A program made the translations under genes and the position numbers. This document shows, one piece after another, positions 1 to 10,117 of a DNA stretch of 10,117 nucleotides; within the stretch, counting starts at the first letter, position 1; every line of letters begins with the position of its first letter. The stretch comes from Legionella longbeachae. Lineage in GTDB: Bacteria; Pseudomonadota; Gammaproteobacteria; Legionellales; Legionellaceae. The notes below the pieces were generated by a model, which was not told the DNA's origin, searched no databases, and saw only the letters and a program-made list of their open reading frames with translations. Location of the stretch: positions 1-10,117 of the forward strand of contig JACPOX010000127.1 in assembly GCA_016191305.1 (NCBI GenBank). The letters are read 5' to 3'.

Positions 1-494
1 AACATGTACAACTGATGGGAAGTGGAACCATTTTACGTGAAGTCATCAAAGCAGCGGATATGTTAAAAACTGACTACTCTGTATCTGCTGATGTATGGAG
101 TGTGACCAGCTTTAATGAACTAAGAAGAGATGGATTGACCATTGAACGTTATAATGCAATGCATCCTCAAGAAAAAGAACAAGAATGTTATGTTGCTAAA
201 CAATTAAAAGGAAGACCTGGTCCAGTAATTGCTGCAACAGATTATATGCGACTATATGCCGAACAAATTCGTGCTTATATACCTAATTATTATGTCACTT
301 TGGGGACAGATGGTTATGGTAGAAGTGATACACGCGAACGTTTGCGTCACTTTTTTGAAGTCGATGCCAAATTTATAGTTTTGGCCGCTTTGAATGCTTT
401 AGTTGCTGAAGGAAGTATTGATAAATCCAAAGTTGTGGATGCAATGAAACGCTATAACATTAATCCTGATAAATTGAATCCGGTTAATCATTAG
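1..494 (+). CDS. aceE: Pyruvate dehydrogenase E1 component, C-terminal part (5' end outside window)
   Basis: This is the C-terminal end of the homodimeric, thiamine-diphosphate-dependent E1 subunit, which decarboxylates pyruvate and passes the acetyl group to the lipoyl arm of E2. The frame is open from base 3 (HVQL then MGSG), so the ATG at 15 is internal and not the start. About 164 residues are visible. They match the transketolase-like C-terminal domain of E. coli-type AceE from memory: GSGTILREV, ADVWSVTSFNELRRDG, the TDYMRLYAEQIRAY stretch, LGTDGYGRSD, then LRHFFEVDA. The ending NPDKLNPVNH corresponds to the usual C-terminus, so this end looks complete. aceF follows 155 bases downstream on the same strand, as in most gammaproteobacterial pyruvate dehydrogenase operons, but a palindromic element sits in the gap. 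The promoter lies outside the window. Confidence 0.95.
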   Translation, partial: HVQLMGSGTILREVIKAADMLKTDYSVSADVWSVTSFNELRRDGLTIERYNAMHPQEKEQECYVAKQLKGRPGPVIAATDYMRLYAEQIRAYIPNYYVTLGTDGYGRSDTRERLRHFFEVDAKFIVLAALNALVAEGSIDKSKVVDAMKRYNINPDKLNPVNH

Positions 495-615: not shown

Positions 616-649
616 TCTTTGATAACTTAGGCACACTTTGAGGAAAAAA

Positions 650-2272
650 ATGTCGAACGAAATAGAAGTTAAAATTCCTGATATTGGTGGAGCCACTCAG
701 GTTGAAGTAATTGAAATCATGGTTCAGGTTGGAGATCAAATCGAAGTTGATACTCCACTAATCACTTTGGAATCAGATAAAGCCAGTATGGAAATTCCTT
801 CTCCAATAGTGGGAAAAATCACTAAACTGCAAGTAAAAATAGGTGATAAAGTATCTGAGGGTGATTTAATTCTTGTGGTTGTTTCAGAAAATAAAGCTGA
901 ACCAGTAAACGAAAATGAAAAAAGTACTGTTACCAAAGAAGAGTCAAACCAAGCAAAAGAAGAAAAAAAAGATACAAAAAAAGATAAACCAGTAACAGAA
1001 CAAGAAATAAAAGTTCCTGACATTGGTGGCTCAACTAAGGTTGATGTAATTGAAATCATGGTCCAGGTTGGGGATCATATCGAAGTGGATACTCCACTAA
1101 TTACTTTAGAGTCAGATAAAGCCAGTATGGAAATTCCTTCTCCAATGAGAGGAAAGGTTAGCAAAGTGAATATTAAAGTAGGCGATAAAGTCTCTCAGGG
1201 TGATTTGATTCTTGTCGCTATTGGCGAACAAGAATCCGATACTGCTATAAAAGAAGATATCAGTGCAGTTGAGTCTCAATCAATAAATATCCCTCATGTA
1301 TCTAAAACGGAACAACCTGTTCAAATGAGCGAAGAGATTTCCTCAAAACCCATTTCTGCAGATCAAATTGATGCAAAAATAATTGCTGCGGGTCCTGCGG
1401 TTAGGCGTCTGGCACGTGAGCTTGGTGTCAATTTAACGGATGTTAAAGGAAGCGGGCGTAAAACACGTATTACTAAAGAGGATGTACAAGCGTATGTCAA
1501 AGCAAGATTAAGTGAGCCTTCTAATTCGGGAACCTTAGGGTTACCAACAAGTCCAGTAATTGATTTTTCTCTGTTTGGTGAAATTGAAACAAAACCCTTA
1601 AATAAAATTAAAAAACTGACTGGAGTTAATGTTCATCGTTCCTGGATTACGATCCCTCATGTAACTCAATTTGACTCAGCTGATATTACTGAAGTAGAAG
1701 CATTTAGAAAGTCTGAGGCAGAATTGGCTAAAGATAAGGGATATAAATTAACTCTTTTGGCATTTGTTTGTGCTGTCGTGAGTAAAGCATTACGAGTTTT
1801 TCCTCAATTCAATGCATCCTTAGATTCAAGTGGCTCCAATCTAATTTTTAAAAAATATTGTAATATTGGCATTGCAGTAGAAACGCCTAACGGTTTAGTT
1901 GTTCCGGTGATTAAAAATGTAGATAAATTAAGTGTTGCCGAAATTGCCACTGAAATGACGCGTTTGAGTGCTAAAGCTCGAGATAAAGGTTTAATGCCTG
2001 TAGATATGTCTGGAGGCTGTTTCACTATTTCTAGTTTGGGAGGAATTGGTGGTACATCATTCACTCCTATAGTGAATAGTCCAGAGGTAGCAATTCTTGG
2101 ATTATCGCGTTCGGAAATAAAACCTGTTTACGAAAATGGTACATTTCTACCGAGATTAATGTTGCCACTGTCTTTATCTTATGATCATCGAGTCATTGAT
2201 GGTGCAGAAGCAGCTCGGTTTACGCGGTTTATTTGTGATTGCTTAAGTGATATAAGACGAATTTTACTTTGA
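650..2272 (+). CDS. aceF: Dihydrolipoyl acetyltransferase, E2 of pyruvate dehydrogenase
   Basis: E2 forms the core of the pyruvate dehydrogenase complex and transfers the acetyl group from its lipoyl arm to CoA. The 540 residues show, in order: lipoyl domain 1 (about 2-78, lipoyl-lysine K44 in ESDKASME), a Lys/Glu-rich linker (about 80-117), lipoyl domain 2 (about 118-192, K157 in the same ESDKASME motif), a second linker, the peripheral-subunit-binding domain (about 242-284, GPAVRRLARELGVN), and the acetyltransferase domain (about 305-540) with the catalytic DHRVIDG motif (H513, D517). E. coli AceF has three lipoyl domains; two is common in other species. An in-frame TTG lies at 638, but the ATG at 650 is chosen because GAGG (640-643) sits six bases before it and MSNEIEVKIPDIG is the expected N-terminus. 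lpd starts 50 bases downstream. No defect is seen. Confidence 0.96.
   Translation: MSNEIEVKIPDIGGATQVEVIEIMVQVGDQIEVDTPLITLESDKASMEIPSPIVGKITKLQVKIGDKVSEGDLILVVVSENKAEPVNENEKSTVTKEESNQAKEEKKDTKKDKPVTEQEIKVPDIGGSTKVDVIEIMVQVGDHIEVDTPLITLESDKASMEIPSPMRGKVSKVNIKVGDKVSQGDLILVAIGEQESDTAIKEDISAVESQSINIPHVSKTEQPVQMSEEISSKPISADQIDAKIIAAGPAVRRLARELGVNLTDVKGSGRKTRITKEDVQAYVKARLSEPSNSGTLGLPTSPVIDFSLFGEIETKPLNKIKKLTGVNVHRSWITIPHVTQFDSADITEVEAFRKSEAELAKDKGYKLTLLAFVCAVVSKALRVFPQFNASLDSSGSNLIFKKYCNIGIAVETPNGLVVPVIKNVDKLSVAEIATEMTRLSAKARDKGLMPVDMSGGCFTISSLGGIGGTSFTPIVNSPEVAILGLSRSEIKPVYENGTFLPRLMLPLSLSYDHRVIDGAEAARFTRFICDCLSDIRRILL
711..1146 (+). repeat. Tandem duplication of the lipoyl-domain coding sequence inside aceF
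   Basis: The blocks 711-807 and 1050-1146 align without gaps over 97 bases with seven differences by my count, at a fixed offset of 339 bases (113 codons). They encode the hairpin that carries the lipoyl-lysine (K44 and K157). Similarity continues less strongly on both sides, through the KxPDIGG start of each domain. The two copies are much closer to each other than the constraint on the protein alone requires, since several third positions also agree. Confidence 0.85.
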
Positions 2273-2322: not shown

Positions 2323-3690
2323 ATGGCTAATAAAATAAAAACTGATGTTGTCGTATTAGGAAGTGGACCTGGTGGATACACTGCTGCATTTAGAGCAGCA
2401 GATTTGGGAAAAAAGGTAGTATTAGTAGAACGTTATGATACCCTCGGTGGTGTCTGTTTAAATGTTGGCTTGTCTGAGCAAGGTGTCAGTTTTGGCACGC
2501 CTAAACTGGATAATAAAAAAATTGTTGCTTGGAAAAATTCGGTAATTTCTAAACTTACAGGTGGTTTAAAAGCATTATCAAAACAGCGTAAGGTAGAAAT
2601 TGTAACTGGAGTAGGCAAATTTTCAGGTACCCATCAAATAACAGTTGTTACTAAAGATGGTGCTGTCGAAGTTGAATTTGAAAATGCGATTATTGCAGTT
2701 GGTTCTGAATCCATTAACTTACCTTTTATACCTGAAGATAAACGGATTTTTAGTTCTACAGGGGCTTTAGAACTTGCCGATATTAAAGGCAGTTTATTGG
2801 TTTTAGGTGGTGGAATTATTGGTTTGGAAATGGCTACAGTTTATTCTTCTTTAGGTGTTGATGTTACGGTAGTGGAATTTATGGATCAACTCATTCCTGG
2901 TGCTGATTCTGATTTAGTTAATGTGTTACAAAAACGCATGCTTAAAAAAGGAGTTAAATTCCTTTTAAAAACCAAAGTAACTGCGGTAGAGGCTAAAAAA
3001 GATGGTATTTATGTTTCTATGGAAGGAGAGCATGCCACAGACAAGGCCTTATGCTTCCAACAAGTTCTTGTATCAGTTGGTAGAAAGCCCAATGGTGGGA
3101 CCATCGATGCAGAAACAGCGGGAATTAAAGTTGATGAGCGCGGTTTTATCAAAGTAGATAACCAACAAAAAACTAATATTTCTCACATTTTTGCCATTGG
3201 TGATGTTGTAGGGCAACCGATGCTTGCTCATAAAGCAATTCCTGAAGGTAAAGTTGCAGCGGAAGTAATTGCCGGTAAGAAACACTATTTTGAGCCTAAA
3301 TGTATTGCGAGTGTCGCATATACCGATCCAGAACTTGCTTGGACTGGCCTAACAGAAAAAGAAGCTAAAGAAAGCAATATTCGTTATGAAAAAGCAACAT
3401 TTCCTTGGGCTGCTAGTGGTCGTGCACTGAGTATGGGACGTGAAGAAGGAATGACCAAATTATTATTTTGCCCAGATACTAATCGAATTTTAGGGGCTGG
3501 AATTGTTGGTGTCAATGCGGGTGATTTGATTGCTGAAACAGCTTTGGCTATTGAAATGTGCTGTGATGTAGAAGATATTGCATTAACAATACATCCTCAT
3601 CCTACGCTCTCTGAAACGATTGCACAGTCTGCAGAAGCATTTGAAGGTACTATTACAGATCTGTATTTACCTAAAAAGAAGAAAAGTTAA
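2323..3690 (+). CDS. lpd: Dihydrolipoyl dehydrogenase (E3) with internal deletion of the redox-active site; probably inactive
   Basis: Family role: E3 reoxidises dihydrolipoamide with NAD+ via FAD and a CxxxxC disulfide, serving the pyruvate and 2-oxoglutarate dehydrogenases and glycine cleavage. The 455 residues keep the FAD motif GSGPGG (13-18), the NAD motif GGGIIG (162-167), the second FAD motif AIGD (291-294) and the C-terminal catalytic dyad H426/E431 in HPHPTLSE. The active-site segment is broken: GGVCLNVG (42-49) runs straight into LSEQGVSFG (50-58). E. coli Lpd, from memory 474 residues, has GGVCLNVGCIPSKALLH there, so 19 residues are gone, including the second cysteine and the following helix. 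The length difference is exactly 19. The frame is otherwise intact, with no stop or frameshift. Start: ATG with AAGAGG (2311-2316) six bases ahead. By family knowledge this protein should not catalyse the reaction; a natural deletion, an altered sequence or an assembly error are all possible. Confidence 0.93.
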   Translation: MANKIKTDVVVLGSGPGGYTAAFRAADLGKKVVLVERYDTLGGVCLNVGLSEQGVSFGTPKLDNKKIVAWKNSVISKLTGGLKALSKQRKVEIVTGVGKFSGTHQITVVTKDGAVEVEFENAIIAVGSESINLPFIPEDKRIFSSTGALELADIKGSLLVLGGGIIGLEMATVYSSLGVDVTVVEFMDQLIPGADSDLVNVLQKRMLKKGVKFLLKTKVTAVEAKKDGIYVSMEGEHATDKALCFQQVLVSVGRKPNGGTIDAETAGIKVDERGFIKVDNQQKTNISHIFAIGDVVGQPMLAHKAIPEGKVAAEVIAGKKHYFEPKCIASVAYTDPELAWTGLTEKEAKESNIRYEKATFPWAASGRALSMGREEGMTKLLFCPDTNRILGAGIVGVNAGDLIAETALAIEMCCDVEDIALTIHPHPTLSETIAQSAEAFEGTITDLYLPKKKKS

Positions 3691-4496: not shown

Positions 4497-5387
4497 ATGA
4501 ATGAAAAAAAAGAATCAGCACTTAAAACTCCTGTATCCTTGCACATGCGAAAAGAGTTTGTAGAGAAAGATAGGAAAGAGTTATATTTAACTTCAGAGGT
4601 GGAAAGAATACCTTATTTAATTACATTTAAAGAAGGTAAAGTTTATAATGCACTGGATATATGTTTAACAGAAGAAAAACTTTTTTTTATCATGGATGAA
4701 AAGGACCGTATATTTGCGATTTCGACAGAAAGCAAATGGAATCATTCTTTTTTTATGGCAGGACAACCAGTTCGCGCAGCCGGTATCATCTCCACCAACA
4801 AACAAGGTAGAATTGATAAGATCAGTAATGAAAGTGGACATTATATTCCCACCACCAAACAGATGCTTTACTTTCTTACTTTTATTTTTCAGCATGTATA
4901 TAAGTTTCAGGGTTATGACGAAATTATTTATGAAAGTCATGATGAGGTACCTCTTAAAAATATTCTCAAAGACTATCCCTTATTTCAGATTGTTAACATA
5001 ATAGATGAAAAGAAATCTTTCGAAAATCAACTAAAAGAAATTTGTATGGGCGTAACTGATTTATCAAATATTAATACACAAACAGTGCAAATTGAAGGAT
5101 ATGACAATCATATTGTTGGTCATGACTATCAGTTAGAACATATAAGAATATCACGATATGGGCTGAAACCCGCAAATAATGATACCTTGAATACAGGTAC
5201 TTGTACTAAAAAACTTGATAACTCTTGTCTTACCAAGGAGCATTCAGAAAGTTTTGAAAAATCTTCCAATTCTTTTAGTTTTTCATGCAATCCCATCAAT
5301 ACTATGTTTACTTCGTCTTCTATGTCATTCTATGAAAAAAATTTAGAATATAATAAGGAATGTGACGATTTTAGCAATCACAAATGA
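4497..5387 (+). CDS. Hypothetical protein with FMAGxPVxxAG...SGHY motif; candidate secreted effector
   Basis: I do not recognise this 296-residue protein as a named family. It has no signal peptide, no clear membrane helix and is probably cytosolic or exported by a non-Sec route. Residues 38-130 look like one folded unit: a beta-rich part (YLITFKEGKVYNAL, LFFIMDEKDRIFAI), then FFMAGQPVRAAG (85-96) and SGHYIPTTKQM (113-123). From memory, an F-L/M-A-G-x-P-V...S-G-H-Y-x-P pattern occurs in other bacterial proteins, including secreted ones, and in plant IQM proteins. Residues 225-278 are rich in Ser, Asn, Thr and Cys and probably disordered. The last 20 residues carry E280, E284, E288, D290 and D291, loosely like the acidic C-terminal signals of Dot/Icm effectors. 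The start is ATG 4497; no good ribosome-binding site is visible. It stands alone, between rimI and a tRNA gene, which fits an accessory gene. The effector idea is inference. Confidence 0.8.
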   Translation: MNEKKESALKTPVSLHMRKEFVEKDRKELYLTSEVERIPYLITFKEGKVYNALDICLTEEKLFFIMDEKDRIFAISTESKWNHSFFMAGQPVRAAGIISTNKQGRIDKISNESGHYIPTTKQMLYFLTFIFQHVYKFQGYDEIIYESHDEVPLKNILKDYPLFQIVNIIDEKKSFENQLKEICMGVTDLSNINTQTVQIEGYDNHIVGHDYQLEHIRISRYGLKPANNDTLNTGTCTKKLDNSCLTKEHSESFEKSSNSFSFSCNPINTMFTSSSMSFYEKNLEYNKECDDFSNHK

Positions 5388-5423
5388 TCGGAAAACAAGC
5401 ATGTACTAAATAAGATTATTTAA

Positions 5424-5510
5424 TGGTACCTAGGGTGGGACTCGAACCCACACGGTGTCACCACCACCGGATTTTGAATCCGGCGCGTCTACCAATTCCG
5501 CCACCCAGGC
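5424..5510 (-). tRNA. tRNA-Leu, anticodon CAA
   Basis: Read on the minus strand, 87 bases fold as a class II tRNA. The acceptor strands are GCCTGGG and CCTAGGT (two G-T pairs), followed by discriminator A and an encoded CCA. The anticodon stem CCGGA/TCCGG closes loop TTCAAAA, giving anticodon CAA at 5474-5476 for UUG codons. A long variable arm (GGTG/CACC, loop GTGA) and the T arm GTGGG-TTCGAGT-CCCAC are present. The long variable arm and the D-arm start TGGCGGAATTGGTAGACGC are typical of bacterial leucine tRNAs. No strong terminator is seen downstream on the minus strand; the AT-only hairpin TAAATAA/TTATTTA just past the 3' end has a two-base loop and is weak. Confidence 0.96.
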
Positions 5511-5522
5511 ATTTGTGCGGCC

Positions 5523-5550
5523 ATTATAACAAAGAAATAAATTCTAACAA
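5523..5550 (-). promoter_or_regulatory. Sigma-70 promoter of tRNA-Leu
   Basis: On the minus strand, TTGTTA (5550-5545) and a perfect TATAAT (5528-5523) are separated by 16 bases. The tRNA begins 12 bases after the -10 box, leaving a short 5' leader. GGCCGC directly follows the -10 box; a G+C-rich discriminator is typical of stable-RNA promoters under stringent (ppGpp) control. This separates the tRNA from the nadA transcript. Confidence 0.8.
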
Positions 5551-5624
5551 TGGTTTTAGGGTATTATTGTTAAGAAAATCAAAAAATTTTACACGTGAAT
5601 TGTCACAATATGTTCCTTAAGAGT

Positions 5625-6994: not shown

Positions 6995-8479
6995 TCAAGT
7001 GAAATAAGTATTTGTCCAAGTTTTAGCAATACTCTCCTGTGCTTTAATATTTTTATTGGGGTAATCTTCGCGAAAGTGGCCACCACGTGATTCTCGTCTG
7101 GTGAGAGCGGCTCTTACAATTAATTCAGCATTAAGGATAATGTTTCTTAATTCAAGAAAATCACGAGTAATACAATGCTTCCAATAATACTCTTCAATTA
7201 TTTTTTTTCTCTTCATTATTAATTGTAGTAGATCTTCAAGGCCTGCTTCAGTACGAACTATTCCTGCATAAGAAGTCATTTCTCCTCTTAAGCCACGCCA
7301 TTGAGCATTAATTTGGCTAGCACGTCGTGCATTGACCTCTCTGGGCGCACTCCAGTTAGGAATATGTTCTGTATATTTCCATGGCGAAGAGATATCTTTT
7401 AAGGTACATCGTGCGGCATTCGCACCCATGACTAGGGCTTCAAGCAAAGAGTTGCTCGCTAGACGATTCGCTCCATGTAAACCTGTAAAGGCAACCTCAC
7501 CTATAGCGTAAAGACGTTTTAAATCGGTGCGACCATCAATATCTGTAAGTACTCCGCCACATTGATAATGTGCAGCGGGAACTACTGGAATCATATCTTG
7601 GCTCATATCGATGCCAATGGATAATAAAGTGGTGTAAATCTGCGGAAAACGTTTTTTGAGAAAATCTTTAGATTGATGGGTAATATCAAGATAAACATAT
7701 CCTTTTTGACTATGCTCAATTTCATTAAAAATGGCGCGAGCAACTACATCTCGAGTAGCAAGTTCCATTTGGTTTGGTGCATATTTTTTCATGAAACGCG
7801 CACCAGTTTCCGCATCTTTAAGTAAGCCACCTTCACCACGTACTGCTTCGGAAATGAGGAAGTTATTTAAAGAATGGTGATGCAATAGAGTAGGGTGAAA
7901 TTGATAAAACTCCATGTTACCAACACGTGCCCCAGCTCTATAAGCCATTGCAACTCCATCGCCGGTGGCGACCATTGGATTGGTAGTGTATCTATAAGTT
8001 TTACCGGCACCGCCAGTAGCTAGGATCACACAGTTTGCAAGGAAAGTATGGATAAAACCGGTTTGATCACCACAATTGAAAATACGCCGGTGCGAATGTC
8101 CGCCTTCTTGCGCAAGATTAAAATTTCCTTTGCTATCTTGTTTAAATCGAACCTTGTATTGGCTCAGTTGCTTTATAGTTTCTGGGCCTTGGCGAATAAT
8201 AAATTCTACAGCGGGTAGATAACACAGCCCATCACCGGCAGCCAACGTATCATTAATATGAGATTCAAGCGAGTCTTCAACAGACTGGACAGAAGCGATA
8301 CCACCTTGAGCATAACGGCTATTGCACTCAATAGCCTCAGCTTTACTAATTAGGGCAATTTTTAAATGGGGTTGCAGACTTAGGAGCTGCAGACAGTATT
8401 GTAATCCCGCCAGACCTGTACCGATAACAAGAACGTCAAACTCAAAAGTTTGTCCCTGTTGCGATAGAGTGTCATTCAT
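6995..8479 (-). CDS. nadB: L-aspartate oxidase with internal deletion in the FAD-binding domain; probably inactive
   Basis: Family role: NadB oxidises L-aspartate to iminoaspartate with FAD, first step of de novo NAD synthesis. The frame is open over 494 residues. Present: GTGLAG FAD motif (20-25), RYAQGGIA (55-62), EGGHSHRR (125-132), the ILATGGAGK strand (152-160), FHPT (194-197), EAVRGEGG (211-218), HYQCGG (304-309), GLHGANRLASNSLLEAL (333-349) and the helical C-terminal domain with TRRESRGGHF. Missing: after GDQTGFIHTFL the protein goes directly to ANCVILATGG. In E. coli NadB (540 residues, from memory) about 50 residues separate TGREVETTL from AKAVVLATGG; they form a helix and the beta-strands that complete the FAD domain. 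The junction lies near 8038. No stop or frameshift is seen, but the fold is unlikely to bind FAD. The start overlaps the purB stop as ATGA, with AAGG eight bases upstream. Confidence 0.93.
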   Translation of the reverse strand: MNDTLSQQGQTFEFDVLVIGTGLAGLQYCLQLLSLQPHLKIALISKAEAIECNSRYAQGGIASVQSVEDSLESHINDTLAAGDGLCYLPAVEFIIRQGPETIKQLSQYKVRFKQDSKGNFNLAQEGGHSHRRIFNCGDQTGFIHTFLANCVILATGGAGKTYRYTTNPMVATGDGVAMAYRAGARVGNMEFYQFHPTLLHHHSLNNFLISEAVRGEGGLLKDAETGARFMKKYAPNQMELATRDVVARAIFNEIEHSQKGYVYLDITHQSKDFLKKRFPQIYTTLLSIGIDMSQDMIPVVPAAHYQCGGVLTDIDGRTDLKRLYAIGEVAFTGLHGANRLASNSLLEALVMGANAARCTLKDISSPWKYTEHIPNWSAPREVNARRASQINAQWRGLRGEMTSYAGIVRTEAGLEDLLQLIMKRKKIIEEYYWKHCITRDFLELRNIILNAELIVRAALTRRESRGGHFREDYPNKNIKAQESIAKTWTNTYFT

Positions 8480-9995: not shown

Positions 9996-10117
9996 ATGAA
10001 AACTATCATCGAATCATATCGGGCGGGTTTATTTCAAAAGAAATATTGGTTACAAAATATAATCGCTGGAATTATTGTTGGAGTGGTTGCATTACCTTTA
10101 GCTATGGCTTTTGCTAT
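9996..10117 (+). CDS. SulP-family anion transporter, N-terminus only (runs off window)
   Basis: Forty codons plus two bases are visible. The translation starts MKTIIESYRAGLFQKKYW and continues with the hydrophobic segment IIAGIIVGVVALPLAMAFAI. GxxVGVVALPLAMAFAI is the conserved first membrane segment of SulP (SLC26-like) carriers, which move sulfate, bicarbonate or other anions across the inner membrane; the substrate cannot be told from this fragment. ATG 9996 is the only likely start, because an in-frame TAA lies at 9978. The ribosome-binding site is weak (AGTGA, about eight bases upstream). It is divergent from purB and probably unrelated to it in function. Confidence 0.82.
   Translation, partial: MKTIIESYRAGLFQKKYWLQNIIAGIIVGVVALPLAMAFA

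What the first reader, a model, noticed from the sequence alone, without database searches (positions are those of the whole stretch)
2452..2490. In-frame loss of the redox-active cysteine segment of dihydrolipoyl dehydrogenase
GGVCLNVG is followed directly by LSEQGVSFG, where the family has the second active-site cysteine and the helix that follows. Compared with E. coli Lpd from memory, exactly 19 codons (57 bases) are absent at about 2469/2470, while every other motif is kept. An E3 with only C45 cannot form the disulfide that takes electrons from dihydrolipoamide. This would stop pyruvate dehydrogenase unless another lpd exists. The rest of the gene is undamaged, so the deletion is recent, or the protein has kept some other role, or the sequence is altered.
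Basis: partly seen in the sequence, partly recalled or inferred. Interest (0 to 1): 0.75.

Follow-up and report, generated by a model that had tools for sequence, protein, structure and literature searches.

The report
Assembly gap mimicking enzyme active-site loss
The gene for an essential metabolic enzyme seems to have lost its active-site piece, but the draft genome drops similar pieces from many genes, RNA polymerase included, so this is almost surely an assembly error rather than biology.

Summary
The lpd gene (2323-3690) lacks exactly 57 bases at about 2469/2470. All 23 same-genus loci aligned and all 80 named loci kept have the missing motif.

The interpretation as a biological loss fails. 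The window lies in a fragmented, 81.7%-complete Legionella-type assembly of 323 contigs. A second gene in the window, nadB, lacks 162 bases in the same way. In a 52-stretch sample of this assembly, 9 of 99 conserved genes carry clean internal deletions of 45-379 bases. Of four long essential genes tested, two are broken out of frame: rpoC (187 bases, including the DFDGD catalytic motif, in the only copy found) and valS (19 bases). No cell could live with that rpoC.

Four of the 11 deletions keep the frame, as chance gives. Ten junctions could be read; all share 0-2 bases with the lost sequence. The assembly also has mis-sized N gaps, one starting at the base after the window end.

Best reading: contig ends were joined without Ns across short unassembled stretches. 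Not a real feature. Raw reads could not be checked.

The parts
2323..3690 (+). lpd, dihydrolipoyl dehydrogenase (E3), 455 codons as assembled, 19 codons shorter than the relatives compared
2469..2471 (+). blunt junction at which 57 bases (second redox cysteine and the following helix) are missing
   Evidence: no shared base as read by eye from the alignment
6995..8479 (-). nadB, L-aspartate oxidase, 494 codons as assembled, 54 codons shorter than 23 of 23 same-genus relatives between two conserved motifs
8054..8055 (-). second blunt junction in the window: 162 bases missing from nadB (position counted from the alignment)
638..2272 (+). aceF, E2 of pyruvate dehydrogenase; only small length differences (up to 11 residues) against the ten best relatives shown
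15..494 (+). 3' part of aceE, E1 of pyruvate dehydrogenase; no deletion against the ten best relatives shown
10117..10117 (.). window end: the next base of the contig begins a 35-base N run (scaffold gap) inside a gene whose relative best matches DauA/SulP transporters (below their cut-offs); a 72-base N run follows at contig 10913-10984

Best explanation
The 57-base loss is an assembly error, not a mutation. Two contig ends inside lpd were placed side by side although a short stretch between them was not assembled, and no Ns were put in its place. Missing 57 bases leave the frame open by chance, so the gene looks like a clean in-frame deletion of the redox-active segment. The organism presumably has an ordinary lpd. 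Shown: the deletion, its counterparts in the same assembly, their blunt ends, their random phase, and one in rpoC that (from established knowledge of RNA polymerase) no cell could survive. Inferred: that the cause is a scaffold or gap-closing join; the assembler and the reads are not known to me.
For: (1) 9 of 99 conserved genes sampled from this assembly carry clean internal deletions of 45-379 bases against relative G018; in 322 gene-by-locus comparisons from 80 named loci the same scan lists no deletion over 30 bases, apart from one N gap (L142) that is 53 bases short (junctions). (2) rpoC lies in two frames with 187 bases missing, including DFDGD, which is in neither strand of the own rpoC loci but in both relatives checked; of 22 relatives searched, 20 have it full length without stops and 2 incomplete ones (87% and 62%) have no match. 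valS lacks 19 bases out of frame. (3) 4 of 11 deletions keep the frame; P(>=4 of 11 at 1/3) = 0.53. (4) Of the 10 junctions that I could read by eye, 7 share 0 and 3 share 1-2 bases. (5) The scan listed no frameshift of 1-2 bases in G000 genes but five of 1-7 bases in G006, so it can see them. (6) 11 N runs of 8-128 bases in the sample; at 3 the flanking ends overlap exactly by 6, 8 and 10 bases although Ns stand between, an error type described for IDBA-UD and CLC assemblies (passages of PMC7111523). (7) The rest of lpd has dN/dS 0.021-0.040 against nine named species; seven L. anisa pairs of intact genes give 0.017-0.044.
Against: No reads could be examined, so lack of read support at the junction is not shown. 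The passages read in the cited paper describe inserted Ns and unsupported local sequence, not blunt joins with lost sequence in these words. The window shows two in-frame losses, which looks selected until the wider sample is seen. The shorter in-frame losses in the sample (45 bases in L239, 93 in L169) could be real lineage differences, since they were compared with one relative only. rpoB and the TIGR00594 polymerase gene are whole. The sample covers about a sixth of the assembly. The 80-locus control comes from the lpd neighbourhood alone.
Confidence: 0.95

Rival explanations
1. The lineage is a decaying symbiont whose genome is really losing gene segments, lpd among them.
For: Small assembly (2.48 Mb; same-genus genomes listed range from 2.0 to 4.8 Mb); many genes with internal deletions; a possible remnant of an msbA-like gene (55 of 588 residues matched).
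Against: The only rpoC found is broken out of frame and lacks its catalytic motif. Decay normally brings single-base frameshifts and nonsense mutations; the scan listed no 1-2 base frameshift and two stops in 30,986 aligned residues. lpd shows strong purifying selection. The readable junctions lack the short direct repeats usual at real deletions (the expectation is general knowledge).
Confidence: 0.03
2. lpd alone carries a real, recent in-frame deletion, independent of the assembly errors around it.
For: The frame is kept and the rest of the gene is undamaged.
Against: It has the same anatomy as the other junctions, and one error deletion in three is in frame anyway. It would remove the only recognisable E3 found in the assembly.
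Confidence: 0.01
3. A chimeric consensus of several strains, with the deletion present in one of them.
For: Fragmented assembly of metagenome type (323 contigs), with 1.06% contamination.
Against: Does not explain why blunt deletions are spread over many unrelated genes.
Confidence: 0.01

Closest known systems
Dihydrolipoyl dehydrogenase (E3, Lpd; TIGR01350; PDB 4jdr_A)
   Same: FAD motif, first redox cysteine, NAD domain, dimerisation domain and the C-terminal HPTL region align over the whole length
   Different: 19 residues with the second redox cysteine and the following helix are missing from the assembled sequence
Local assembly errors at scaffold joins in metagenome-assembled genomes (PMC7111523, passages read)
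   Same: Fragmented draft with mis-sized N gaps, including Ns between ends that overlap, and incorrect protein-coding genes as the result
   Different: The passages read describe unsupported sequence and superfluous Ns; blunt joins with lost sequence are my inference for this assembly
Glutathione-disulfide reductase (NF004776 / TIGR01421) at G000:C194:6195-7520
   Same: Same flavoprotein disulfide reductase superfamily; carries an intact CVNLGC pair
   Different: Not an E3: 626.4 bits to NF004776 (cut-off 480), 332.4 to TIGR01350, below its cut-off of 408.8

Membership tests
Dihydrolipoyl dehydrogenase (E3) | Profile score over the curated cut-off of TIGR01350 | tested here: met
   442.7 bits, cut-off 408.8
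Dihydrolipoyl dehydrogenase (E3) | Redox-active CxxxxC pair | tested here: not met
   Second cysteine absent from the assembled sequence; judged an artefact, so this is not evidence about the organism
Dihydrolipoyl dehydrogenase (E3) | FAD, NAD and dimerisation domains | tested here: met
   PF07992, PF00070 and PF02852 all matched over their cut-offs
Dihydrolipoyl dehydrogenase (E3) | Gene beside E1 and E2 genes of pyruvate dehydrogenase | tested here: met
   aceE 3' end, aceF and lpd in order on one strand
Local assembly error at a join | Comparable lesions scattered through unrelated genes of the same assembly, indispensable ones included | tested here: met
   9 of 99 sampled genes, plus rpoC and valS among 4 long essential genes searched
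Local assembly error at a join | Lengths random modulo 3 | tested here: met
   4 of 11 in frame (lengths; test)
Local assembly error at a join | No read supports the junction | not testable with these tools
   No reads held
Reductive genome decay | Single-base frameshifts and nonsense mutations accompany the deletions | tested here: not met
   No 1-2 base frameshift listed and two stops inside matches, 99 genes; small frameshifts near gene ends could be missed by the scan

The most novel reading that the evidence does not exclude
A lineage of Legionella keeps an E3-like flavoprotein without the redox disulfide for another role (for example as a structural subunit of the complex or as a diaphorase) while the rest of the gene stays under strong selection.
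Probability: 0.01. Interest if true: 0.7.

Novelty: not a real feature. Interest (0 to 1): 0.07.

Why it matters
It shows that a clean, in-frame 'loss of the active site' in a single draft genome can come from assembly alone. The lesson is practical: before reading such a loss as biology, count comparable deletions in genes that cannot be lost (rpoC here) and ask whether about one in three is in frame. This assembly should not be used for claims of gene loss.

Tried and rejected
Second lpd in the same assembly: only a glutathione reductase was found.

Deletion by recombination between short repeats: the junctions of lpd and nadB have near-matching bases around them, but read strictly they share none; for the 10 junctions read by eye the overlap is 0-2 bases. 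The pabB junction was too diverged to read; its length of 109 comes from the protein-level scan.

Selection for keeping the frame: rejected, 4 of 11.

Left out of the count of 11: a diverged gene in L240 whose in-frame gaps (21, 39 and 72 bases) do not make one clean junction; the msbA-like remnant in L160; an apparently broken SDR-family gene in L066, seen and not analysed (the scan lists no event for it); a 15-base insertion beside the antiporter deletion, an artefact of the protein alignment there; three gene-spanning N gaps. In one search the nadB loss is split into two gaps of 138 and 30; the DNA alignments give 162.

A first look for DFDGD in the own rpoC loci read only one strand, the wrong one; one search repeated it on both strands with the same result.

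Control caveats: G006 shows no deletion over 15 bases in 94 genes, but it is 99.8% identical to G018 in RpoC, so the 80 named loci are the better control; those come from the neighbourhood of lpd, their divergence from G018 was not measured locus by locus, and one of them has an N gap 53 bases short (L142). A planned control with another metagenome-type genome (G002) could not be fetched. The gene in L239 was not identified (one search failed); the one in L169 has no NCBIfam match at 1e-40.

Literature: searches (metagenome-assembled genomes, scaffolding errors, frameshift, deletions; dihydrolipoamide dehydrogenase, active site disulfide, Legionella) found no paper holding all terms; one search gave a listing from which only PMC7111523 was opened, and only passages of it were seen; one search gave a listing of 8 of 15 papers, with nothing on an E3 lacking a cysteine in the titles and abstract starts shown.

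Full report
What is there. The window is bases 1-10117 of contig C25 (14,596 bases) of an assembly of 2,483,502 bases in 323 contigs, completeness 81.68% and contamination 1.06%. The best matches among named records are Legionella species. The window carries the 3' end of aceE, aceF, lpd, rimI, a 296-codon ORF without NCBIfam or Pfam match, a tRNA-Leu, and on the other strand nadA, nadB and purB. The lpd ORF (2323-3690) is open over 455 codons and passes the TIGR01350 cut-off. Against PDB 4jdr_A it lacks exactly 19 residues, beginning with the second redox cysteine, and aligns everywhere else. In DNA the loss is 57 bases against 23 of 23 same-genus loci, and the missing motif is present in 23 of 23 of these and in 80 of 80 named loci.

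A second loss in the same window. nadB (6995-8479, minus strand) lacks 54 codons: 20 residues lie between two conserved motifs where 23 of 23 same-genus relatives have 74 (DNA alignment). Like lpd it stays in frame. Two in-frame losses in one window would suggest selection or a strange biology, so I sampled the rest of the assembly.

The assembly as a whole. I took 52 stretches (429,610 bases, of which 406,567 are not N) and compared them with 937 ORFs from 1.2 Mb of relative G018. In 99 genes with a match of at least 65% identity (30,986 residues) the scan found clean deletions in nine: lpd, nadB, an antiporter gene (best profile GadC, below its cut-off), purD, lpxD, a pyruvate dehydrogenase E1-alpha gene, pabB, and two genes not named here, in L169 and L239 (names from the relatives' copies; events). 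They measure 57, 162, 119, 119, 50, 379, 109, 93 and 45 bases. A tenth, diverged gene (L240) was dropped. The same scan on 322 gene-by-locus comparisons from 80 named loci (160,826 residues, all from the lpd neighbourhood) listed no deletion over 30 bases apart from one N gap that is 53 bases short; on 94 genes of G006 it listed none over 15 bases, though G006 is very close to G018. The scan works by chaining tblastn pieces, so it can miss losses near gene ends or ones that leave only a short remnant, in both the sample and the controls.

The decisive gene. I then searched the own assembly for four long indispensable genes. rpoB and the TIGR00594 DNA polymerase are whole. rpoC lies in two frames on contig C67, model positions 1-386 and 444-1146, and no other copy was found. 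Compared with G018, 187 bases are missing, and with them the DFDGD motif that holds the catalytic metal: it is in G018 and G006 and in neither strand of the own rpoC loci (its role is established knowledge). Of 22 relatives in the same search, 20 have a full-length rpoC without stops and 2 incomplete genomes have no match. valS is broken by a 19-base loss that shifts the frame. A living population cannot have this rpoC, so at least this deletion is an error, and it has the same anatomy as the others.

Anatomy of the junctions. Of the 11 deletions, 4 keep the frame, against 3.7 expected; the chance of 4 or more is 0.53. Of the 10 junctions I could read by eye, 7 share no base and 3 share one or two with the lost sequence. 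Real bacterial deletions usually sit on short repeats, and a k-mer assembler cannot join ends without a long overlap (general knowledge); blunt joins point to contig ends that were laid next to each other. The sample also holds 11 N runs of 8-128 bases. At three of them the two ends overlap exactly by 6, 8 and 10 bases although Ns stand between. At the three N runs that fall inside scanned genes, the gap region is 16, 31 and 47 bases longer than the relative requires. Gap sizes are thus misjudged. The base after the window end begins one of these runs. Passages of PMC7111523 describe such local errors, including Ns inserted despite overlapping ends in IDBA-UD and CLC assemblies, and note that leaving them propagates incorrect protein-coding sequences in public databases. 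Which program made this assembly is unknown to me.

Against genome decay. The rest of lpd has dN/dS of 0.021-0.040 against nine named species, like seven pairs of intact genes (0.017-0.044). The scan listed no 1-2 base frameshift and two stops in the G000 matches, while it did list small frameshifts in G006. Decay would leave many.

Conclusion. The missing active-site segment is most likely an assembly join without Ns (0.95 for an assembly error of some kind; the scaffold-join mechanism itself is inference, perhaps 0.75). Nothing here bears on whether the organism has a working pyruvate dehydrogenase.

Noticed in passing
window 8054/8055 (nadB, minus strand): A second blunt in-frame loss, 162 bases, in L-aspartate oxidase, not mentioned in the finding.
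   Followed up: yes
G000:C67:1041-4879 (L275, L276): The only rpoC found in the assembly is split into two frames with 187 bases missing, including the catalytic DFDGD motif.
   Followed up: yes
G000:C170:4881-7651 (L168): valS carries a 19-base out-of-frame loss.
   Followed up: yes
L160 (G000:C70) 7953-8117: Only 55 of 588 residues of an msbA-like ABC transporter gene are matched, near two other conserved genes; larger loss or remnant.
   Followed up: no
window 4497-5387 (+): 296-codon ORF with no NCBIfam or Pfam match and no tblastn match at 1e-20 in the relatives' loci held; possibly lineage-specific.
   Followed up: partly
window 5423-5620 (+): A short ORF (MVPRVGLEPTR...) overlaps a tRNA-Leu (caa) gene on the other strand at 5424-5510 and is probably not a gene.
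   Followed up: partly
L257, L268, L271 (G006): The single-contig relative G006 shows five frameshifts of 1-7 bases in matched genes, an aceE-sized one among them, which look like sequencing errors of another kind.
   Followed up: no
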